Assembly (NCBI GenBank): GCA_944350305.1
Contig: CALVOO010000003.1
Span: 1 to 34,394, forward strand
DNA length: 34,394 bases
Source: an uncultured Bacilli bacterium
Lineage (GTDB): Bacteria > Bacillota_I > Bacilli_A > RF39 > UBA660
Direction: 5' to 3'
The notes beneath the pieces are model-generated. The model worked only from the letters and a program-made list of their open reading frames with translations, was not told the DNA's origin and ran no database searches. Positions 7,026 to 30,119 of this stretch are shown here, in pieces. The position numbers and the translations under genes were made by a program. Within the stretch, counting starts at the first letter, position 1. Each line of letters begins with the position of its first letter.

Positions 7026-7553
7026 ATGTATTTTGATGAAAGGGAAAATTTTTTGGATTATGTAGGCGAAGAAGTAAATAATTATATTAAGGTAGAAGAT
7101 GAAGAACATACTGAACTTAGTAATCATGAAAATTACCATTTTAAAAATAATAAGATTTATGATATTAATAATATAAGCATTAATAACTATAGGGCTAATA
7201 TGTCCAGTGATTTGAGTCTACCTAAAGATGCTTTAAATAAAGGCGGCATATTTAAAAATATTTATGATCCTTATAAAAACTATATTTATAAAGTTGTTGT
7301 TAGTGGTGAAAGGGATGAAATGTTATTAAAAATTCAAGAGTTAACTTTTGCTATGAAGGATTTAGGATTATATTTGGATGTTTATCCAAATGATGGTGAT
7401 ATTTTTGATAAGTTTAAGAATTATTCAAAAGATTTAGATAAAATTAAAAAAACTTACGAAGCAAAATATGGCCCACTAAATGCTTTTGAGATTGAAGGTA
7501 ATAAATATGATTGGTATATGAATCCATGGCCATGGGATAAAGGGGGTAATTAA
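7026..7553 (+). CDS. CotJA-CotJB fusion, spore-coat-type protein
   Basis: 175 aa. Residues 95-171 match CotJB: a helical LLKIQELTFAMKDLGLYLDV, then YPNDGDIFDKF and KYGPL, ending with the diagnostic MNPWPWD (166-171). Just ahead, residues 66-83 (PKDALNKGGIFKNIYDPY) match the core of the small CotJA protein, which is normally encoded by its own gene. The N-terminal 60 residues are acidic and unassigned. Fused here, CotJA and CotJB precede CotJC by one base, the usual cotJABC order. In Bacillus these are assembled into the spore coat with a manganese catalase. Whether this organism sporulates is unknown. The SD GGGAGG lies 7 nt upstream. No good SigA promoter is seen; CATATTAT at 7001-7008 is only loosely like a SigE -10. 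Confidence 0.82.
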   Translation: MYFDERENFLDYVGEEVNNYIKVEDEEHTELSNHENYHFKNNKIYDINNISINNYRANMSSDLSLPKDALNKGGIFKNIYDPYKNYIYKVVVSGERDEMLLKIQELTFAMKDLGLYLDVYPNDGDIFDKFKNYSKDLDKIKKTYEAKYGPLNAFEIEGNKYDWYMNPWPWDKGGN

Positions 7554-7554
7554 T

Positions 7555-8115
7555 ATGTTTAAATATGAAAAAATGTTAGAATATCCTGTGAATATTAGAA
7601 AAAAAGATTTGAGGATGGCAAAATTGTTAATGGCACAGTTGGGTGGGCCGGATAGTGAACTTGCAGCATCCTTAAGGTATTTCTGTCAAAGATATACTAT
7701 GCCTGATGCTAAAGGTAAAGCATTATTAACTGATATTGCAACAGAAGAATTTGGACACATAGAAATGATACAGACAATGGTTAATCAGTTAACAAAAGAT
7801 GCTTCATTGAAAGAATTAAAAGAAGCTGGACTTGATACATATTTTGTACAACATAAAAAGGGAATTTATCCTGCTGATGCAAATGGTGTACCATTTACTG
7901 CATCTTATTTTCAATCAACTGGAGATCCAATAGTCGATTTACAAGAAGATATGGCTGCTGAGGAAAAAGCAAGGGCTACATATGAAAACTTAATGGATTT
8001 GACAGATGATGCTGATTTATTAGCGCCGCTTAGCTTTTTAAGGCAAAGAGAAGTTGTGCATTTTAATAGATTTAAAGAGTTACATGATGAATATAAAAAG
8101 AATGGTTTAAAATGA
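7555..8115 (+). CDS. cotJC: CotJC, manganese-catalase-family protein
   Basis: 186 aa, the length of CotJC rather than of full manganese catalases (about 270-300). It has the ferritin-like four-helix fold with the di-manganese ligands expected in ELAASLRYFCQRY, ATEEFGHIEMIQT (E-x-x-H) and EDMAAEEKARATYE...REVVHFNRF (E and E-x-x-H). So the metal site looks intact and peroxide dismutation is plausible. The gene begins 1 nt after the CotJA-JB stop, with GGGGG/GGTAA as SD, and ends with TGA. The pair is probably a dedicated oxidative-stress or coat operon. The terminator follows 8 nt after the stop. Confidence 0.92.
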   Translation: MFKYEKMLEYPVNIRKKDLRMAKLLMAQLGGPDSELAASLRYFCQRYTMPDAKGKALLTDIATEEFGHIEMIQTMVNQLTKDASLKELKEAGLDTYFVQHKKGIYPADANGVPFTASYFQSTGDPIVDLQEDMAAEEKARATYENLMDLTDDADLLAPLSFLRQREVVHFNRFKELHDEYKKNGLK

Positions 8116-12297: not shown

Positions 12298-12314
12298 GGT
12301 TTTGAGGGATGTTT

Positions 12315-12881
12315 ATGTATACATTATTTATTGATTCTCATAGCAGTAATATATGTCTAGCTCTGTATAATGGCAAAGTATTGATAAAAAAAGAAAAAGA
12401 AAGTATTGAATCTCACTCTATTTTTCTTGTGCCTATGTTAAAGGAATTATTGGATGAAAATAATATTTCTTTTGATGAGATTGCAAATGTTGTTGCTGTG
12501 AATGGGCCAGGTAGTTTTACTGGTATTAGGATAGGGTTAAGTGTAGCTAAAGCTATTTGTTATTCTCTAAAAAAACCTATTTATTTAATTTCTAGCTTAA
12601 CTTCTTTGTTGGTTAGTGTTGATTCTGATACTTGTAAAATGGCGGTTATTCCTGATAATAAGGGTTTTTATGTAAGTGTTTTTGATGAAAATAATAATAG
12701 TGTTGTTGATGAAAGATATCAAGAAAATATTGATGAGTTTTTGGCAAAATATAAAATTGTCGATGGCGCTTTGAATGTTGAAAAAGTTATTAAATATGCT
12801 TTAAAGCAAGAACCGGTAAATGTTTTTAAGGTAAAAGCTAATTATGTTAAAGTTATTGAGGTTATGGATGATAAAAAGTAA
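12315..12881 (+). CDS. tsaB: t6A complex dimerization subunit TsaB
   Basis: 188 aa from ATG 12315, which sits 6 nt after GAGGG. The ATG at 12309 touches the SD and is disfavoured. It has the ASKHA-fold N-terminal lobe: LFIDSHSSNICLAL, then HSIFLVPMLKELL and the highly conserved NGPGSFTGIRIGLSVAK (about 64-80). The C-terminal lobe is shorter than in typical TsaB (about 220-230 aa). It has no catalytic centre of its own and dimerises with TsaD to form the threonylcarbamoyl-transfer platform. Its 3' end contains the SD (GAGG 12858-12861) and start of the next gene (14-nt overlap), so TsaB and the TsaD fusion are translationally coupled. Confidence 0.93.
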   Translation: MYTLFIDSHSSNICLALYNGKVLIKKEKESIESHSIFLVPMLKELLDENNISFDEIANVVAVNGPGSFTGIRIGLSVAKAICYSLKKPIYLISSLTSLLVSVDSDTCKMAVIPDNKGFYVSVFDENNNSVVDERYQENIDEFLAKYKIVDGALNVEKVIKYALKQEPVNVFKVKANYVKVIEVMDDKK

Positions 12882-14205
12882 ACAGCTTAAGGACTATGAA
12901 TTTGAAATTGATTATTTTAATGGTAATTGTGTTGTAGGTTATTTGAAGTATGAAGTTACTTTTGATGTTGTTAATATTGTTGATGTGTTTGTTGATGAAA
13001 ATTTTAGGCGTCAAGGTATTGCAACTGAACTTTTTGTTTTTTTGTTTGAAAGTGTTAATCCGGATAGGTTTATGCTGGAAGTTAATGTAAATAATTTTAA
13101 AGCCATAAAGTTATATGAAAAGTTTGGATTTGTTACTATTCATGTTAGAAAAAAATATTATAAGGATGGGGATGCATTAATTATGGAATTAAAAAATAAT
13201 AAGGATGTGTATATATTAGCTATTGAATCTTCTTGTGATGAAACGAGCGTAAGCATTGTTAAAAATGGTGTTGTTGATGTTTCAACTACAGTTAATTCTC
13301 AAATAGATGTCCATAAAAAATATGGTGGTGTTGTTCCTGAAGTTGCTTCAAGAATGCACTTGGAAAATATTACTTTTGTTTTGGATGAAACTTTGTCTAA
13401 GGCTAATATGAGGCTTGAGGATATGGATGCTTTCGCTTGTACTTATGCACCAGGGCTTTTAGGTAGTTTATTGGTTGGCCTTGAAACTACTAAAACTTTG
13501 AGTTTAATATATAATAAGCCATTTATTAAAGTTAATCACATGATGGGACATATTTATGCTAATAATATTGGTAGCAATATGAATTATCCGTTGCTTGCTT
13601 TAATTGTTAGTGGTGGCCATACGGATTTGATTTATATGGAAGATGAAACAACTATAAAATATATTGGCCAAACTTTAGATGATGCAGTAGGTGAATGTTT
13701 TGATAAAGTGGCTAGAATTGTTGATTTGCCTTATCCGGGCGGACCTAATGTTGAAAAACTTGCACTAAATGGTAATCCTACTTATTTGATGCCTAATTTG
13801 TTGAGTGATGGAAGTACTAATTTTAGTTTTAGTGGAATTAAAAGTCATGTTGTTAATTTAGCCCATAATGAAAAGCAAAGAGGAAATGAAATTAATAAAG
13901 AGGATTTGTGCCGTTCTTTTCAAGATGCTGTTACTAAGTCGCTTGTAGATAAAACTTTGCTTGCTTTGAATAAAACTGGCGCTAAGAATTTGGTTATGGC
14001 TGGGGGTGTTGCTAGTAATAGTTTTATTAGAGAGTCAATAAGGAAAATGTGTGAAGAAAATAATATTAATTTTAGTGTTCCAGATAAAAAATATTGTACT
14101 GATAATGCGACTATGATTAGTGCTGCTGCATATGTGCTATATAAAAATAATAAATTTGCTGGACTTGATACAAATGCAAAAAGTCATGAGTTGTTAACTT
14201 TATAA
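12868..14205 (+). CDS. tsaD: RimI-TsaD fusion: GNAT acetyltransferase + t6A transferase
   Basis: 445 aa in one uninterrupted frame. Residues about 1-110 are a RimI-type GNAT: acetyl-CoA loop VFVDENFRRQGIATELF, then MLEVNVNNFKAIKLYEKFGF and the RimI-like RKKYYKDGDALIMEL. It is about 40 residues shorter than RimI and lacks much of the N-terminal beta1-alpha1-alpha2 part. Residues 113-445 are a full-length TsaD: ILAIESSCDETS, the metal site HMMGH (H224, H228), SGGHTDL, FSFSGIKSHV and VMAGGVASNS. TsaD transfers the threonylcarbamoyl group to A37; RimI acetylates the N-terminus of ribosomal protein S18. They are usually adjacent genes, or RimI is joined to TsaB; here RimI is joined to TsaD. ATG 12868 is chosen for its SD; 12844 is in frame but has none. 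Confidence 0.92.
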   Translation: MIKSKQLKDYEFEIDYFNGNCVVGYLKYEVTFDVVNIVDVFVDENFRRQGIATELFVFLFESVNPDRFMLEVNVNNFKAIKLYEKFGFVTIHVRKKYYKDGDALIMELKNNKDVYILAIESSCDETSVSIVKNGVVDVSTTVNSQIDVHKKYGGVVPEVASRMHLENITFVLDETLSKANMRLEDMDAFACTYAPGLLGSLLVGLETTKTLSLIYNKPFIKVNHMMGHIYANNIGSNMNYPLLALIVSGGHTDLIYMEDETTIKYIGQTLDDAVGECFDKVARIVDLPYPGGPNVEKLALNGNPTYLMPNLLSDGSTNFSFSGIKSHVVNLAHNEKQRGNEINKEDLCRSFQDAVTKSLVDKTLLALNKTGAKNLVMAGGVASNSFIRESIRKMCEENNINFSVPDKKYCTDNATMISAAAYVLYKNNKFAGLDTNAKSHELLTL

Positions 14206-14745: not shown

Positions 14746-14794
14746 AATTTATTCTTTTTTTTTGTTTTTTTAATATACTTTATTGGTGATACTA

Positions 14795-17368
14795 TTGAAC
14801 TATAATAAAACAGGTCTTACGGATAAGGAAGTAGTAGCAAGTAGGCAAAATCATGGTAGTAATAGGATTGTTAGTAATAAAAAAAATAGTTTTCTTAAGT
14901 TACTTATTGAGTCTTTAAATGATCCGATTATTAAAATATTACTTATTGCATTAGGGGTAAAAGTAGTATTTTTATTTCGTGATAGTGATTTTTATGAGTT
15001 GGTTGGAATTATTTTATCGATTTTAGTTGCAAGTATTATTAGTAGTTTAAGTGAATATGGAAGTGAAAAAGCTTTTCAAAAGTTGGCTGAAGAAAATAGT
15101 AAAGTTAATGTTAAGGTTTTTAGAAATTCAAAACTTGTTAATATTGATATTGATGATGTTGTTGTCGGTGATGTCGTTTTACTTGAAAGTGGCGATAGAA
15201 TTTGTGCTGATGGGGTTCTTATTGATGGTGAAATTTATGTTGATGAGTCTATGTTGACCGGAGAGACAAAGGAAAAGTTAAAAGAGGTAAATGATAAGGT
15301 TTTTAGAGGAAGTGTGATTACCAATAAGCATGGTGTTATGAAAGTTTACGATGTTGGTGCTAATACTTTTTATGGTAATATTGCTAAAAGTATTGAGGAA
15401 GCTAGTCCTGTTAGCCCTTTAAAATTGAGACTTAGAAATTTGGCTCAGATAATTAGTAGAATAGGATATTTTTGTGCTTTGTTGGTTATGTTATCGTATC
15501 TTTTTAATGTGATTGTTGTTGAAAATAATTTTGAACTTTCTAAAATTATTTTAATGTTTCAAAATTATAAAATTTTAATTCCTCATTTGTTATATTCTCT
15601 TACATTGGCAGTGACAATTATTGTAGTTTGTGTTCCAGAAGGTTTACCTATGATGATTACTTTGGTATTAAGTTCAAATATGAAAAGAATGTTAAAAAAT
15701 AATGTTTTGGTAAGGAAATTGGTTGGTATTGAAACTGCTGGTAATATAAATATTTTGTTTAGTGATAAAACTGGAACTCTTACAAGAGGCATGTTTAGTG
15801 TTGTTGGTTTGTGTTTATATGATGGAACTTTTTATAATAAATTTAATGATGTTAAATCCGATAAATTAAAAGAAATTTTGAATTTTGCTTTGATATATAA
15901 TAATGCTGCTTTTTTTAATGGTGCTGAGATAATAGGTGGTAATGTAACTGATCGAGCAATTATGGAGTTTGTCGGTAAAAATGAACGAGGAAAATATAAA
16001 ATTGTTGAAGAAGAACCTTTTGATAGTAAAATTAAATATTCTAGTGTTACTGTTGAAGTCGATGGTAAAACAACATTTTATAAGGGTGCATATGAAAAGT
16101 TTAAAGATAAATTAAGTTTTTGTTATAATGCAGATGGTATGAAAAAAATAATTAATGTTAATAATTTAAATAATGTAATTAACAAATATTCTAAAAATGG
16201 TTATAGAATTATTACTTTGGTTAGTAAAAATGGAAATAGTTATACTTTTATTGGATTTGTTCTGATTAAAGATGAGGTTAGAAAAGAAAGCATTGATGCT
16301 ATAAAGTTAGTTAATGAAGCTGGTATTCAAACAGTTATGTTGACCGGTGATTCTTTAGATACTGCAAAAAATATTGCTCGTGAAATAGGGCTTGTTAATA
16401 ATGAAAATGATTATGTTATTACCAGTGATGAATTAAATAAAATGTCTGATGAAGAAGTTAAATTGATTTTGCCTAGGTTACGTGTGGTGGCAAGAAGTTT
16501 GCCAAATGATAAAAAAAGACTTGTTTTATTGTCTCAAGAATTAGGGTTGATAGTTGGAATGACTGGGGATGGTGTTAATGATGCTCCTGCTTTGAAAAAA
16601 GCTGATGTTGGTTTTGCTATGGGTAGTGGCACAGAAGTTGCAAAGGAAGTTAGTGATATTGTTATTCTTGATGATAATTTTTTGAGTATTACTAAAACTA
16701 TTCTTTTTGGTAGAACAATTTTTAAAAGTATTAGAAAATTTATAATTTTTCAATTGACTGTTAATTTATGCGCTGTTGGGTTATCTGTTATTGGACCGCT
16801 TATTGGTATTGTTACACCTGTTACTGTTATTCAAATGTTGTGGGTTAATATGGTTATGGATACGCTGGCTGGAATTGCTTATGCTTATGAAGCTCCTATT
16901 AAAGATTATATGAAGGAAAAACCTAAGAGAAAAGATGAACCAATTATGAATAAATATATGTTGAATGAAATTTTTGTTACTGGTTTGTTTAGTACTTTTA
17001 TTTGTATCTTTTTTTTAAAGTCTAGTTTTATTCATGAGCTTTTTAGAATTGATAATAATGATAAGTATGTTATGACCGCTTTTTTTGGACTTTTTATATT
17101 TTTGGCAATTTTTAATTCTTTTAATGCTAGAACTCATAGGTTAAACTTACTAGCTAATATTTTTAAAAATAAAGTTTTTCTTTGCGTTATTGCTTTGATA
17201 GCTGTTGTCCAACTTGTTTTGATTTATTTTGGCGGTAGTGTTTTTAGAACAACTGGTTTGACTTTTTTAGAGTTTCAGATAATGGTATTTCTTGCTTTTT
17301 TGGTTATTCCTTTTGATCTTTTTAGAAAAATTATACTAAAAAAATTTAATAAATTAAGTGGTTGTTAA
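14795..17368 (+). CDS. P-type Ca2+-transporting ATPase (P2A/P2B)
   Basis: 857 aa from the TTG at 14795, placed after GGTGAT as in other genes here; the upstream TTG 14783 and GTG 14786 overlap that SD. It exports Ca2+ driven by ATP. Order: N-terminal cation-ATPase segment (GLTDKEVVASRQNHG), actuator loop SMLTGETKEK (TGE present, the usual TGES Ser is Thr), M4 VCVPEGLPMM carrying the Ca2+-site PEGLP, phosphorylation site DKTGTLTRG (Asp324), FxSxxKYSSV nucleotide site, MLTGDSLDTA, hinge MTGDGVNDAPALKKADVGFAMG and M6 WVNMVMDTLAGIAYAYEAP. About ten TM helices. The PEGLP and NxxMD motifs favour Ca2+ over other cations. It is convergent with the RNB gene 11 nt away. Confidence 0.93.
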   Translation: MNYNKTGLTDKEVVASRQNHGSNRIVSNKKNSFLKLLIESLNDPIIKILLIALGVKVVFLFRDSDFYELVGIILSILVASIISSLSEYGSEKAFQKLAEENSKVNVKVFRNSKLVNIDIDDVVVGDVVLLESGDRICADGVLIDGEIYVDESMLTGETKEKLKEVNDKVFRGSVITNKHGVMKVYDVGANTFYGNIAKSIEEASPVSPLKLRLRNLAQIISRIGYFCALLVMLSYLFNVIVVENNFELSKIILMFQNYKILIPHLLYSLTLAVTIIVVCVPEGLPMMITLVLSSNMKRMLKNNVLVRKLVGIETAGNINILFSDKTGTLTRGMFSVVGLCLYDGTFYNKFNDVKSDKLKEILNFALIYNNAAFFNGAEIIGGNVTDRAIMEFVGKNERGKYKIVEEEPFDSKIKYSSVTVEVDGKTTFYKGAYEKFKDKLSFCYNADGMKKIINVNNLNNVINKYSKNGYRIITLVSKNGNSYTFIGFVLIKDEVRKESIDAIKLVNEAGIQTVMLTGDSLDTAKNIAREIGLVNNENDYVITSDELNKMSDEEVKLILPRLRVVARSLPNDKKRLVLLSQELGLIVGMTGDGVNDAPALKKADVGFAMGSGTEVAKEVSDIVILDDNFLSITKTILFGRTIFKSIRKFIIFQLTVNLCAVGLSVIGPLIGIVTPVTVIQMLWVNMVMDTLAGIAYAYEAPIKDYMKEKPKRKDEPIMNKYMLNEIFVTGLFSTFICIFFLKSSFIHELFRIDNNDKYVMTAFFGLFIFLAIFNSFNARTHRLNLLANIFKNKVFLCVIALIAVVQLVLIYFGGSVFRTTGLTFLEFQIMVFLAFLVIPFDLFRKIILKKFNKLSGC

Positions 17369-17379
17369 TTCCTTAGTTT

Positions 17380-19236
17380 TTAACTATCTATGGGTTTAAA
17401 TGTTTTTATGTAAGCTTGTTCGTATTCGTCTTCAAACATTTTTAATTCTTTTTCTTTTTTGTTAGCATATTCTACAAATTCTATTGCAGTGTGTTCTAAT
17501 TCTTTTAATTGTTCAATAGTCAATTGTTGTTGTGATAAAAAGTAAAGTCGTTGCATAAAAATATCTGTATATCGTCTTATTGGTGAACTAGAGTGTGAAT
17601 ATGTATCAAGTTTTAGTCCGTAGTGGCCTATGTTATCAAGAGAGTAATATGCTCTTGGGTAACATTCTTTTAAAATGTTTATAAGATCACTATTTATTAG
17701 TTCTTTTTTTTCATTAAATATTTCTATACTTGTTGGTTGTGGTTTGTCGTGTACTCGATATATTACCGGTAAATTATGAAACTGTGAAAGATATTCTGCA
17801 AATAATCTGTTATATAAAACCATGCTTTCGTTTATTATTTTTTCTGAAATAGGATCTTCTGGTACAGTTATTTCCCTAATTAATTCTTTTATTAATCGGT
17901 ATTCGTTTCTTTGCGAATTACTTATTAGTGATGTAGCGTGTTCAAGTAATTTTAAATTATAATCAGTATCATTGGGGAGTGAGATTTCATGTCTTAGAAT
18001 TTTGTCGGCAAGTGTATATGATAAGTTTTGGTTAATATTAATTGTTTCTTCTAAAAATGTATAGCTTTCTATTTCGCCAGATTCACTAATTTTAGCATAT
18101 AAACTTATTACATTGCGCTTTTTTCCTGCATCTAATGATAAATAATTTTTTGAAATATTTGGTGAAATCATGTGTAGCACTTGATCCGGTAAATATAATG
18201 ATTTGAATTTTTGCTTAATATTTTCATCTAATGGTGAATTAGGTATTATAAAGTTTCCAACATCAGCTATGTGTATTCCAAGTCTATATCCATTTTTTTC
18301 TTTTTTTATTGATAGTGCATCGTCTTTTATAGTGCTTTTCGCATCACCATCAATTGTTAAAGCTACTGGCTGTGACTCTTTATATATTAATATTTGAAAG
18401 TTATTTGAATCTATGACTGTATTTTCACAAAAATTATAATTAATATCATATTTTATTAATGTTTCTTCTGGTGTATTGTTTGTTTTTTTCATTTTTAAAA
18501 TTTTTTCTAATTCTTTTAAAATTATTTGGTATTTTCTAGTCAAATGTTCAGATTTTGGATTAGTTATTTTCTCTAAATATGATGAGTCAATTTTATTGTA
18601 ATTGATCTTTTCTGATAGAATATGTAATAAGTTTAAATAATAGTAAATATCACGATTTTCTAATTCAATGCTTTTAAAACATTTATCTAAAATTTGAGTG
18701 AATATTTTACAATTTTCTTTTTCTTGTTGCGCTTTTATTTTGATTTTGTTTTCTTCGAGTAGTTTTAATAGCCTTTTGCCTTCTATAATTTTTTCTAATT
18801 CAGATATTTGTGATTGAAATTTCTTTTCTAAATTTTTTTCATTTTTAAATTCAAGTTTATTGATTTTTTCTTTTAATAATATTAAATTATTTTCTATTTC
18901 TTCATGTAAAAACTCGCCAATCAAACCAGTAATTTTGATTAATAGGCGAGCTTGTTTGTATAAATGTATGTGTGCATCATTTTCACTAAATATACAATTG
19001 TTGGTAAACATTTCTAATAGTGAAACTATTTTTAATGCATTAGAAAAATTTATTTCATCTTCAGTTTTAACATAATTTGTAATTTCAGTATCTAGTAGCT
19101 TAAATAAAATTCTTATTAGTTGTTTATGATTGTCAATTTGGGTGTCATAACCTATTTTTTTTTGCAACTCGTTAAGCATTATATTTAAATCACTATTTGT
19201 TTCAATTATTTTAGAAACTGAAATTTTTTTTGCCAT
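17380..19236 (-). CDS. RNB-domain protein with unusual N-terminus and altered catalytic loop
   Basis: 618 aa. Residues about 290-590 are an RNB (RNase II/R) domain: TIDGDAKSTIKDDAL, LGIHIADVGNFIIP, LSLDAGKKRNVISL and SSPIRRYTDIFMQRL. RNase II/R carry four catalytic Asp in D-x5-D-x-D-D. Here D296 and the pair D305-D306 are present, but the loop is one residue longer and no Asp lies immediately before the pair (S-T-I-K instead), so metal binding may differ. The N-terminal 290 residues are helical, with a long Lys/Glu coiled coil (about 115-185), and show no cold-shock OB domains. The C-terminal S1 domain is absent. It is probably an exoribonuclease relative with changed activity or partner; it is not a standard rnr. 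The SD is weak (GTGTAAAATG context). Confidence 0.75.
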   Translation of the reverse strand: MAKKISVSKIIETNSDLNIMLNELQKKIGYDTQIDNHKQLIRILFKLLDTEITNYVKTEDEINFSNALKIVSLLEMFTNNCIFSENDAHIHLYKQARLLIKITGLIGEFLHEEIENNLILLKEKINKLEFKNEKNLEKKFQSQISELEKIIEGKRLLKLLEENKIKIKAQQEKENCKIFTQILDKCFKSIELENRDIYYYLNLLHILSEKINYNKIDSSYLEKITNPKSEHLTRKYQIILKELEKILKMKKTNNTPEETLIKYDINYNFCENTVIDSNNFQILIYKESQPVALTIDGDAKSTIKDDALSIKKEKNGYRLGIHIADVGNFIIPNSPLDENIKQKFKSLYLPDQVLHMISPNISKNYLSLDAGKKRNVISLYAKISESGEIESYTFLEETININQNLSYTLADKILRHEISLPNDTDYNLKLLEHATSLISNSQRNEYRLIKELIREITVPEDPISEKIINESMVLYNRLFAEYLSQFHNLPVIYRVHDKPQPTSIEIFNEKKELINSDLINILKECYPRAYYSLDNIGHYGLKLDTYSHSSSPIRRYTDIFMQRLYFLSQQQLTIEQLKELEHTAIEFVEYANKKEKELKMFEDEYEQAYIKTFKPIDS

Positions 19237-24203: not shown

Positions 24204-27200
24204 ATGGATTATAAATATCAAAGAAGACAAATATTTGGAAAAAGATTAAAAGTTCCAAGACATATTTTAAATAAAGTATATAATTGTACTCTTTCTTTTA
24301 ATGAATATATTGAGTATCAATTAGATGATAAGATTCCAACTTCATGTATTGCAGAATCAGATAGAAAAATAGTTGAAAAATTTGGTATAGATAAATGCAA
24401 AGAATTAGACTGGGAATTAATAAATAAACGAGTATATTATAATTACGATATTGATTTTAGAAATATACTAATGTCTATTGATTCACAATCTGAGGATATT
24501 AATAGTGCTTTGTATGAATTAGTGAAAGATAAAATAAGACCAATTGATTATTCTCCTAGAATGCGAGAAGTTTATTCTGATAGATTGTTTGATGTTTCAC
24601 AAAATAATGATGAAAATCTAAGATACATAATAAACGCATTTAATAGGGGTGAAGTTGGTTTAAAGGAAATAATATATAATTGGGAGTTGTTTAAGGACAA
24701 AGATTTGAGTTATTGTTTATTAAAAGATTCTGCAAACGAAAATCATATTACAGACACCATGTTAAAAGAATTTATGTTTAATTATGGTGATTTAGCATCT
24801 TTGATAGTAGAAAATAATGATATTTATACATTTATTGTTGATATATCAATCCTTAACTCAGGAGAAGAAAAACATGATTTCGTTAAGCGATTTACAGATG
24901 ATATATTAAGTAATACTTATAGAAAGTATGGAGATTCTAGACCAACTATTAAACTAACAGATGAGCAATATAAAGAAATTTTCAAGTATTCATCAATGGG
25001 AAATTATTTAAAGGTGTTTAATAAACAGAATGCTACACCTATAATTGAAGAATTAAAATCATTACCTCAAGACTATATTTTTAATATGTCTATTCCGTTT
25101 ACTGAATTATTAAATTATGATGTTTTACTTTTCATTGGAACTTATGGTTTGAAAAATATTGTTGATTTTGATAATGAATGTGGGCATTTTTTTACTAAAA
25201 ATAATTGCGAAATGTTGAAATTGATGAATGATATGTATTTACATTATGCGGCTAATGAACGTGATCCTAACAAAACTATTTATACTAAGAAAAGTATAGA
25301 TGAAAATGGAAATTATGTTGATAAACCATATACTAAAGATGAATTCTATGAAGCAATGAGAAGAATGATAATTTTTGGTCCAAGTAATGGGAATTATGCA
25401 GATAAAGCTCCTGATTATAGAGAAATGACAGGAGAATTTAGAGTTAGAAATGCAGAATTATTTATTTCAGAACAAGCCCCTGAAGAGTTACAAAAACTTT
25501 TTTACACGAAATCAATTACTCCTCAATTATTATTGGAACATCCAGAATATGTTCAATATTTAAACGGAAAAGATTTAAGTTCATGTTTTAAAAATATAAA
25601 AATACAAGTTGAAGGTAGCAATGCATTGTATGTCTATGAAAATATTTATAAATTTCTTAGTGGCAAAACAGATTTTAATGGCGTTATGAATTTTATTACA
25701 GAATATAGTGATGTTTTAGATATTGTTTTTGATAGAAGAATGTCTGATTATTATAAATATGAAATAAAGTTTTCAATTAATGATGATATAGACCAAATTC
25801 AAAATAGAATTCAGGAAACTTTAAGAAAACTCATTATTGAAAAAAGATTGACGTATCCTACACATATTCCTAAGAATTTTATCAAAAAATATCCATCTAT
25901 ATTTTTAGATAAAAATGCGCCACAAGAATTGCAAGAAGTTTTTTATAATAGAACAATATCATCTGAGTTTATTTTATCAAACCCTTCTTATAGAGAATAT
26001 TTGAAAAGTGTTGATTTGGAAGTTTTGTTTAAATATATGCCTGTAAATGTTATAAATGAAGAACTTAGATATGGACAAGTTAATTTAGTTAGTGGTATTA
26101 AACAAGTGTTTGGTTCAGATTATGCTTTTGATGTTATGCTTTTATATGGAAAATACATTGAAAAAGTTTTTGAAGATAATAAATTGCAAAATTTTAAGTT
26201 TAATCCAAATTTTTCAAAAGATGATTTACTAGATGAACTAGATAAAACAATTTTACAAAATATTATCTATGGAAATATGAAATATGATGAAAATATTCCT
26301 AGCCATTTTAAAAATAACCACCCAACATTATTTTTAGATGCAAATGCACCACAAGAATTGCAAGAAGTTTTTTATAATAGAACAATATCATCTGAGTTTA
26401 TTTTATCAAACCCTTCTTATAGAGAATATTTGAAAAGTGTTGATTTGGAAGTTTTGTTTAAATATATGCCTGTAAATGTTATAAATGAAGAACTTAGATA
26501 TGGACAAGTTAATTTAGTTAGTGGTATTAAACAAGTGTTTGGTTCAGATGATGCTTTTGATGTTATGCTTTTATATGGAAAATACATTGAAAATGTTTTT
26601 GAAGATAATAGATTGCAAAATTTTAAGTTTAATCCAAATTTTTCAAAAGATGATTTACTAGATGAACTAGATAAAACAATTTTAGAAAATATTATCTATG
26701 GAAATATGAAATATGATGAAAATATTCCTAGCCATTTTAAAAATAACCACCCAACATTATTCTTAGATGCAAATGCACCACAAGAAATTAAGGATAAGTT
26801 TTATAATAGAAAACTTACATTAAAGGACTTTAATGATAATACTGAATTATTAAATATATTTGAAAATACAAATATAGCATGTGCTTTTTCGGAAAAAATG
26901 TCTTGGATTATTCCACTATTTAATGATTCTGAAAATTTTAAAACTGCAAATTATAATCGTCTGAAAGTTATAACAGCATATTCTAAAATACAAGATGTTG
27001 AATTTCAAATAGCATTTAAAGAATATGTTATGGGATTTGGAACTAATATTGATGTAGAAAAAATTGAATATGTTTCAGAAGTATTATCGAGACTATCATT
27101 ATCAAATTCAAGTGAAATATTTACATTTAGAAAAGAACTTGCTACACAAATATTAAAATCAAAAGATCCTTTGGAAAATTTAGTCAAAATCGAAGATGTA

Positions 27201-29221
27201 TTCATAAGAAATAATATTCCTATAGTTGGAAAAATATATTCTTGTTTTGAAATATTACATCCTGATTTTCAAGGGTTCAATTTTGAAAGTTCAATGATAT
27301 CACCAGTATTAAAAAAATCATCAACAACAAGTAAAAAAGTAATAGTATTTTCAGATTTAATTAAATGTTCATTTGGATCTAATAATAGATCTGTTAATGC
27401 TTATTTAAAAAATATAGAATTTGGTTCTAATTTATATGAGAGTATAAAATATGGTCAAATCCAATTTGATTCACTTGGAGAAGCTGAAATGAAAGAGTTA
27501 ACTACTTTCTGTAGTCATTTAGCAACATTATATAATAATACAATGAAAGCTAAAAAAGGAAATGAAACTTTTGTATCAACTGGATACGTTTTAACAGATA
27601 TTTTGGAACTTTCAAAAAAATTATCTCCGGATGGTTCACTGGATTATAATTTGGCTGATAGAGTTATTAGAATGTTTTGTGGATTTACTGGAATTGATAC
27701 ATTAGAACAAGCTAAAGATTATATTGAAGGAAAAGTTAAAACAGCTGATTCAAGAAATAGAGATGCTTCTAATTCTGATATGATATTAGAACAAGGAGAT
27801 TTTGTAAAAGGAATTGGTGATATTACATATCTTAGAAACATTTTACAAAATGGTAGTGTTTCAAAAGAGTATTTAGGTTCGAGTGCAGGTAGTGATTTTA
27901 CTCCACTTGATACTGATATATCGATGATAATGAGTTCAGATGGAACAATAAGCGAAAAAATGAATGCAACTGATGCTTCAAGTTATGGTCCTATATGGTT
28001 TGTACTTAAAAATGATGATAGATTTATGATTACTAGAACTAGTAGTGAAACATTAGAAGCAAAACGCGATATGTCTAAAATGGAAGTATTTTATACAGGC
28101 GTTTTAGGACAAGGACATTATGGAATTAGAACAGGTTTTGCTTCAAGTGAAATAAATTATATTGTTATGGAAAACTATGATTCAAAAGTTGGGTTAGAGA
28201 TTGCAATGAATGGCTTTTATATTCCTGTAGCTAATAAGGAAGGTAAAATTGTATTTACTCCAAAAGACTACGATCAATTAAGAGAAAAAATGAGTGGGTT
28301 ATCATACTATGGAGAAGATAGATATACTTTCTCTGAAAATCTAATTACAGAAGAAACAGAATATTTTGCCCAACAAATAGAACAAAGTAATTTTGAAGTT
28401 CAGACCAAAAGAGAAAAAATAAATAGTATTATTAAAAAATCACTTGAAGAATTAGGGTTACATCTAAAAACAAATATTGATGGAGATTTAACTGAGGGAT
28501 TTGTCGAATTAATTGATACAGGTTCTACAGGAAGAGGAACAAATAAACCTGGTGATGGCGATTTTGATTTTATGATGAGATTAGATAAAACTATATTGTC
28601 AAATCCTACAAGATTAAATGAATTAAAACAAACTATATTAAGAAATTTAGGTAGAGAAAATTCTTCTGAATTAACTGGAACTGGAGACTTTAGATTAAAG
28701 AGTGTTCCAATAGATACTGATATGAGCGTAGATATTGATATTACATTTACTGAAAAAACAGATAAAGTATCATATTCTACTGATATGGCATTACAAGATA
28801 GACTTGCTACTATTCAAAGAAATGAACCTGAAAAGTATAAATATGTTGTTTCAAATATATTACTAGCAAAACAAGTTCTTAAAAAAGCTGAAGCATATAA
28901 ACCTAATCGTGGAGAAATACCTCAAGGTGGTTTAGGTGGCGTTGGAATTGAAAATTGGATTCTTCAAAATGGTGGTTCATTTATTGATGCTGCTAAAAGT
29001 TTTGTTGAGGCAGCTGATGGAAAAAGTTTTTCGGAATTCCAATCAACTTATCAAATATGGGATTTTGGCGATAATCATTTAGCCGAAAGAAGAGGACTAT
29101 ATGCACATGATAATTTTGTTACAAATAACATGAGTGAGGCAGGATATCAAAAGATGGTATATGCTTTAAAAGAGTATTTAAAATCTATGGAAATTACACA
29201 AGTAGATACTGAAACTATAAA

Positions 29222-29228
<7 letters not shown>
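24204..29228 (+). CDS. 1674-aa protein: repeat modules + C-terminal nucleotidyltransferase
   Basis: The largest gene here. The C-terminal quarter is a polymerase-beta-fold nucleotidyltransferase. GS (1440-1441), eleven residues, then D1453-F-D1455 fit the G[GS]-x9-13-DxD signature, and VDIDITF supplies a third Asp (D1510 or D1512). Downstream, GGLGGVGIENWILQNGGSF (about 1575-1593) resembles the substrate domain of archaeal CCA-adding or OAS-like enzymes. So it may transfer NMP to RNA, protein or a small molecule; the substrate is unknown. Residues about 1190-1425 are a separate conserved-looking block (LRNILQNGSVSKEYLG, FTPKDYDQLREKMSG), unassigned. Residues 426-900 hold four 143-147-residue modules, each opening with a 'NAPQELQEVFYNR' motif. 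The N-terminus is unassigned. Codons are more A-ending than in the neighbours (aca, tca, gga, cca), which suggests transfer. SD AGGTGAT. Confidence 0.85.
25920..26777 (+). repeat. Tandem duplication, 2 x 429 bp, in frame
   Basis: Two adjacent 429-bp copies (25920-26348 and 26349-26777; protein residues 573-715 and 716-858). By eye they differ at only four or five bases; four change amino acids (Y/D, K/N, K/R, Q/E). Diverged copies of the same module lie before (from residue 426) and after (from 859). The period is a multiple of three, so the frame is kept. Confidence 0.95.

Positions 29229-30119
<891 letters not shown>

What the first reader, a model, noticed from the sequence alone, without database searches (positions are those of the whole stretch)
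17380..19236. RNB-family protein without OB domains and with a changed catalytic Asp loop
RNase II/R use D-x5-D-x-D-D. Here the sequence is D296-G-D-A-K-S-T-I-K-D305-D306: one residue longer and with the Asp before the DD pair missing. The N-terminus is a 290-residue helical/coiled-coil region instead of cold-shock domains, and no S1 domain follows. It may be a distinct RNB subfamily with new substrate rules or a non-catalytic role.
Basis: partly seen in the sequence, partly recalled or inferred. Interest (0 to 1): 0.6.

Follow-up and report, generated by a model that had tools for sequence, protein, structure and literature searches.

The report
Eroding RNase R-derived paralog family
This gut-bacterium gene belongs to an apparently undescribed family of RNA-degrading-enzyme look-alikes in which the RNA-gripping side domains were replaced by a helical domain and the cutting site has worn away repeatedly, so it probably grips RNA more than it cuts it, much like the fungal protein Ssd1.

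Summary
The 618-aa ORF at 17380-19236(-) is a clear RNB protein (Pfam RNB 194.5 bits, residues 292-564), far below the RNase R cut-off, with an all-helical N-terminus, no cold-shock or S1 domain, and the loop D296-x8-D305-D306. All six sampled species of the genus share the extra residue and lack a conserved acid at the second-Asp position; D298 is not conserved.

Relatives are not ordinary RNase R. About 80 genomes, all in one Bacilli family, carry a ~600-680-aa paralog with the same architecture, usually beside a normal RNase R. The family is monophyletic against 33 RNase Rs. Its active site is graded: 7 of 80 keep D-D-D-D, 25 have E in second place, 17 have lost a metal-binding Asp (seven or more changes). 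Both domains remain under purifying selection.

In 49 of 78 genomes the gene directly follows dnaI (helicase loader); in two genomes of one genus it is fused to RNase R.

Best explanation: an RNase R duplicate turned RNA-end-binding scaffold. The window protein keeps three metal Asps, both substrate tyrosines and the RNA-binding Arg, so nuclease activity is not excluded. No assay was possible.

The parts
17380..19236 (-). whole gene, 618-aa RNB-family paralog
   Evidence: ORF; Pfam RNB 194.5 bits against cut-off 29.3; dN/dS about 0.2 within the genus
18472..19236 (-). residues 1-255: all-helical N-terminal domain in place of HTH, CSD1 and CSD2 of RNase R
   Evidence: AlphaFold helices 7-262; no Pfam family shared by members; no PDB match outside RNB entries better than E 0.24; profile A3 finds it only in one Bacilli family
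18367..18471 (-). residues 256-290: pre-RNB linker of RNase R type (KY-x-I...F motif)
   Evidence: hhalign of the family N-terminus with the RNase R N-terminus, E 9.6e-6 over 56 columns
17533..18366 (-). residues 291-568: shortened RNB domain
   Evidence: Pfam; AlphaFold pLDDT about 90 over most of it; Foldseek best 7did RNase R E 3.5e-18
18319..18351 (-). residues 296-306: altered catalytic loop D296-GDAKSTIK-D305-D306; equivalents of D201, D209 and D210 kept, D207 missing, one residue inserted
   Evidence: alignments
18193..18195 (-). Y348, equivalent of the substrate-clamping Tyr253 of RNase II
   Evidence: invariant in the genus; assigned by alignment to RNase R and the spacing given in PMC12320835
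18016..18018 (-). Y407, equivalent of Tyr313 of RNase II
   Evidence: invariant in the genus; assigned by alignment and spacing
17575..17577 (-). R554 in SPIRRY, equivalent of Arg500 of RNase II
   Evidence: invariant in the genus; kept in 77 of 80 family members
17398..17517 (-). residues 574-613: C-terminal helix where RNase R continues into S1
   Evidence: AlphaFold (low confidence at the very end); no S1 match

Best explanation
The gene is a member of a lineage-restricted RNB paralog family that arose by duplication of an RNase R-type gene. The HTH and two cold-shock domains were replaced by a helical domain, the RNase R pre-RNB linker was kept, and S1 and parts of the RNB shell were lost. 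In many members the protein has become a pseudonuclease: it holds a single-stranded RNA 3' end in the old RNB channel, through the conserved Arg500 and Tyr253/Tyr313 equivalents, without efficient hydrolysis, and uses the helical domain to dock onto a partner. The partner is most plausibly in the RNase R or replication/helicase-loading machinery, given fusion to RNase R in one genus and tight linkage to dnaB-dnaI in most. Shown by sequence: architecture, monophyly, graded loss of the active site, purifying selection, gene neighbourhood. Inferred: RNA binding, partners, and that the window protein hydrolyses RNA poorly.
For: Architecture: RNB only in Pfam, RNase R model 159.8 bits against a cut-off of 597.85, helical N-terminus, RNB fold, RNase R linker. 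Family: the N-terminal profile matches 91 of 291 genomes of the same GTDB family, 58 of 150 genera, and no convincing RNB paralog elsewhere in 296 genomes of the class. It coexists with RNase R. Monophyly with support 0.989; 7 of 80 D-D-D-D, 25 D-E-D-D, 63 keep all three metal Asps, 17 do not, at least 7 parsimony changes. Retention is uneven: D201 79/80, Arg500 77/80, D210 72/80, Tyr253 66/80, D209 64/80, D207 7/80, against 33/33 in RNase R. Purifying selection also in eroded members, for example G006b/G175 dN 0.146, dS 0.801. In the window genus, RNase R-invariant residues that remain are far more constrained than other RNB residues (34/46 against 68/207 invariant, Fisher p 6e-7). Direct dnaI linkage in 49 of 78. 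Fusion to RNase R in G007 and G176. Precedent: fungal Dis3L2/Ssd1 lost the site at least four times while the protein persisted (PMC8097288).
Against: The window protein keeps the three metal-binding aspartates, both tyrosines and the arginine, all invariant in the genus, which fits retained catalysis. Dss1 is active with E in second place (PMC8097288), so the 25 D-E-D-D members may be active. No RNA binding was tested. In the window's genus the gene has left the dnaI operon, so the replication link is weakest exactly here.
Confidence: 0.55

Rival explanations
1. The window protein is an active 3'-5' exoribonuclease with a remodelled loop. Three Asps bind Mg as usual, and a hydroxyl (T302, T or S in all congeners) or water replaces the second Asp, which only contacts the 3'-OH; the helical domain gives a different substrate or partner preference.
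For: D296, D305, D306, Y348, Y407, H538, R554 invariant in the genus; retained RNase R core positions significantly more constrained; Asp209, reported as the most critical residue (PMC3293843), is kept; second-position change to E is tolerated in Dss1 (PMC8097288).
Against: All 33 RNase Rs compared keep the second Asp. The loop is one residue longer and variable between D296 and T302. The changed LSNGICSL segment, N469 for the conserved Glu and missing RNB segments are all atypical. Mutating the conserved Asps abolished activity in several family members according to PMC8097288.
Confidence: 0.33
2. It is a replication-associated factor: the family works with the DnaI/DnaB helicase-loading machinery, the RNB fold serving as a single-stranded nucleic-acid grip, loosely parallel to Dss1 with the Suv3 helicase. 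This overlaps with the best explanation (it names the partner) and its probability is not exclusive of it.
For: Directly downstream of a DnaI-type AAA+ gene in 49 of 78 genomes, median printed gap 6 bp, with DnaB_2 upstream in 27 and thrS nearby in about 40. Even more decayed copies sit in the same slot in G035 and G064, and a protein of similar length in G015. Dss1 also replaces its cold-shock domains with domains that bind a helicase (PMC5758563).
Against: Operon position may reflect only co-expression. The dnaI-linked slot is inherited, so the 49 cases are not independent. The window genus and several other clades have the gene elsewhere; in a congener an AbiEii-type nucleotidyltransferase follows dnaI. 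The N-terminal domain shows no homology to DnaI or DnaB.
Confidence: 0.2
3. It is a decaying duplicate without function (pseudogene in progress).
For: Active site erodes repeatedly; genomes are small.
Against: Open full-length frames of mostly 600-680 aa; dN/dS about 0.1-0.28 in every pair tested, including eroded ones; persistence in about 58 genera.
Confidence: 0.03

Closest known systems
Bacterial RNase R (TIGR02063; B. subtilis 8CDU, M. genitalium 7DID)
   Same: RNB fold, pre-RNB linker, D201/D209/D210, Tyr253, Tyr313, Arg500 equivalents; probable ancestor
   Different: No HTH, CSD1, CSD2 or S1; second Asp missing; RNB segments missing; helical N-terminus
Fungal Ssd1/Dis3L2 pseudonucleases (7AM1)
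   Same: RNase II paralogs with repeated loss of the active site while the protein persists; an RNA-binding role is the proposed analogy
   Different: Ssd1 keeps CSDs and S1 and has lost all four Asps; fungal; independent origin
Dss1 of the mitochondrial degradosome (6F3H)
   Same: CSDs replaced by other domains; E tolerated at second Asp, as in 25 family members; partner is a helicase
   Different: Has beta-barrel, WH, HTH and S1 domains; active nuclease; no sequence relation of the N-terminus found
Deinococcus DrII (2R7D)
   Same: Short bacterial RNB protein whose CSDs are replaced
   Different: Replacement is an HTH domain (PMC5758563), much smaller than the 255-residue helical domain here

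Membership tests
RNB superfamily (Pfam PF00773) | RNB domain above curated cut-off | tested here: met
   194.5 bits against 29.3; all Foldseek hits up to E 0.001 are RNB proteins
RNB superfamily, catalytic members | D-x5-D-x-D-D metal site | tested here: not met
   D-x8-D-D, no conserved acid at the second position in six congeners
RNase R (TIGR02063) | Full-length equivalog score | tested here: not met
   159.8 bits against cut-off 597.85
RNase R (TIGR02063) | HTH, two CSDs and S1 around RNB | tested here: not met
RNase R (TIGR02063) | 3'-5' degradation of structured RNA | not testable with these tools
   needs an assay
Ssd1-type pseudonuclease | Loss of metal-coordinating residues | tested here: inconclusive
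   window protein keeps three of four Asps; 17 of 80 relatives have lost at least one metal Asp
Ssd1-type pseudonuclease | CSDs retained as RNA-binding surface, descent from Dis3L2 | tested here: not met
   no CSD; carries the bacterial RNase R linker
Dss1 | beta-barrel, WH, HTH and S1 around RNB | tested here: not met
   AlphaFold N-terminus all helix, no S1
DrII | HTH in place of CSDs | tested here: inconclusive
   N-terminus is a 12-helix region without a PDB match of its own; a buried HTH is not excluded

The most novel reading that the evidence does not exclude
A bacterial counterpart of the fungal RNase II pseudonucleases: an RNase R duplicate that became a non-catalytic RNA 3'-end-binding adaptor, ancestrally coupled to the DnaB-DnaI helicase-loading operon, with a helical domain type not seen elsewhere.
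Probability: 0.25. Interest if true: 0.8.

Novelty: new variant of a known kind. Interest (0 to 1): 0.57.

Why it matters
Inactive RNase II-type proteins are documented in fungi, and the searches made here found no report of a bacterial counterpart. One bacterial family here offers a graded series, from intact to fully eroded sites on one architecture, in which the order of loss and the role of the retained residues can be tested directly. If the RNA-binding adaptor reading is right, it adds a new role for RNase R duplicates in small gut Bacilli and may link RNA ends to helicase loading or to RNase R itself.

Tried and rejected
YtxC (PF08812), which I recall from memory as sitting between dnaI and thrS in B. 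subtilis, was tested as the origin of the helical domain or of the slot: no match in 98 relatives and only one sub-threshold match in 120 phylum genomes, with the control ringing in B. subtilis. Descent of the helical domain from DnaI, DnaB or the neighbouring M23 peptidase: no signal. Pfam hits to the N-terminus are scattered single-member chance matches. No PADLOC defence family. A first AlphaFold run on seven genus sequences was poor (pLDDT 48.7); adding RNB segments of RNase Rs from viral contigs gave 76.9. Viral contigs held no family member with the single-protein query used. D298 as a substitute for the missing Asp was rejected because it is not conserved. True loss of RNase R from this genome was considered: none is found, but all five congeners have one, in G001 within a gatA-gatB-rnr-smpB-efp block, and neither that DNA nor GatB is found in this 89.7%-complete assembly, so an assembly gap is more likely. 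The GatB search had no positive control.

Full report
Observation. The ORF at 17380-19236 on the minus strand encodes 618 aa. Pfam sees only RNB above its cut-off, 194.5 bits, residues 292-564. The RNase R equivalog model scores 159.8 bits against a cut-off of 597.85. The loop reads D296-GDAKSTIK-D305-D306. The AlphaFold model (44 sequences, mean pLDDT 76.9) shows 12 helices in residues 7-262 and a confident RNB fold. Foldseek finds 44 PDB chains at E up to 0.001, all RNase R, RNase II, Dis3, Dss1, Ssd1 or DrII; the helical part has no match of its own.

Origin. A profile of the N-terminal part of 79 members aligns at its end with the RNase R region just before RNB (E 9.6e-6, 56 columns). So the new domain covers about residues 1-255, and the linker plus RNB are RNase R-derived. 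Within RNB, segments conserved in RNase R near positions 402-436 and 466-523 are missing or shortened, and LSNGICSL has changed in essentially all members.

Distribution. The N-terminal profile finds matches in 91 of 291 genomes of the same family, about 80 of them strong, in 58 of 150 genera. In 296 genomes across the class nothing convincing appears outside that family; four weak hits in another family are to frames of about 294-300 aa. Named congeners are 'uncultured Bacilli bacterium' MAGs, one 'uncultured Clostridia'. That the family is RF39/UBA660 is my inference, not tested. RNB is present in 284 of 291 family genomes, and nearly all genomes with the paralog also have a ~700-aa RNase R.

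Phylogeny and erosion. Against 33 RNase Rs from genomes of the same family or class the 80 paralogs are monophyletic, FastTree support 0.989. The four-residue signature is DDDD in 7, DEDD in 25; 63 keep all three metal Asps and 17 do not, with 7 or more parsimony changes. Retention: D201 79, D207 7 as D, D209 64, D210 72, Tyr253 66, Tyr313 62, Arg500 77 of 80. The count of losses depends on an alignment of diverged sequences and a single RNB tree, so it is approximate; one of the 80 (G016) is a doubtful member. dN/dS lies at about 0.1-0.28 in ten pairs, also in eroded members, which speaks for pseudoenzymes rather than pseudogenes. In the window genus the RNase R-conserved residues that remain are significantly more invariant than other RNB residues.

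Neighbourhood. In 49 of 78 genomes the preceding same-strand gene is a DnaI-type AAA+ protein, with a median printed gap of 6 bp; four of those gaps came out as large negative numbers because my script mishandled overlaps. A DnaB_2 protein lies before it in 27, and a threonyl-tRNA synthetase follows within a few genes in about 40. In the window genus the gene instead lies convergent with a P-type ATPase gene (14783-17368, recognised by its DKTGT motif) and divergent from a 142-aa ORF, and the dnaI of a congener is followed by an AbiEii-type nucleotidyltransferase. Some genomes hold a still more decayed protein in the dnaI slot: G035 794 aa with no Pfam RNB hit, G064 557 aa with a weak one, and in G015 an 809-aa frame not recognised by the family profile. 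G035 has both this and a DEDD copy elsewhere. In genus g3 (G007, G176) the paralog is fused in frame to a complete RNase R, 1273-1283 aa, while a separate RNase R is present.

Mechanism. Established knowledge: Asp201, Asp209 and Asp210 coordinate Mg and the second Asp contacts the 3'-OH (PMC8097288); Asp209 is the most critical and Arg500 is important for activity and RNA orientation (PMC3293843); two tyrosines clamp the substrate (PMC12320835). The most economical reading of a family that keeps D201, Arg500 and the tyrosines well and D207 worst is a protein that still engages an RNA 3' end but no longer needs to cut it. The helical domain would supply the partner. For the window protein itself, activity is open: I give 0.55 to a mainly binding role and 0.33 to an active enzyme.

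Comparison. Ssd1 is the closest functional analogue, with at least four fungal losses of the site (PMC8097288, PMC8934651). Dss1 is the closest for replacement of CSDs and E at the second position, and its partner is a helicase (PMC5758563). DrII is the closest short bacterial form. The window protein is a member of the RNB superfamily, but not of RNase R, Ssd1 or Dss1. Searches of the held open-access library found no bacterial RNB pseudonuclease family; papers outside that library were not searched.

RNase R in this genome. None is found, but the block that carries it in G001 is also unseen, GatB included, so an assembly gap is the likelier cause. The window protein should not be assumed to replace RNase R.

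Noticed in passing
L046:4609-8460 and L097:3014-6835: In-frame fusion of the eroded RNB paralog to a complete RNase R in two genomes of one genus, beside a separate normal RNase R.
   Followed up: partly
L235:1745-4129, L237 minus strand to 2429, L236:3922-5595: Long, very decayed relatives (or likely relatives) directly after dnaI in G035, G015 and G064, suggesting a hidden larger family in the dnaI-thrS slot.
   Followed up: partly
window 12309-14205: TsaB-like ORF overlapping a GNAT-TsaD fusion (RimI-type domain in front of TsaD).
   Followed up: no
window 7026-8115: CotJB spore-coat protein (weak CotJA match in front) followed by a Mn-catalase family protein, in a 0.8-Mb genome; possible sporulation remnant.
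   Followed up: no
window 24204-29228: 1674-aa ORF without any Pfam match, next to a resolvase gene (29230-30015).
   Followed up: no
L124-L203: At least 80 viral contigs of IMG/VR encode RNase R relatives, some on contigs over 300 kb.
   Followed up: no
L242:2771-3607: AbiEii-type nucleotidyltransferase directly after dnaI in a congener, in the slot where other genera have the RNB paralog.
   Followed up: no
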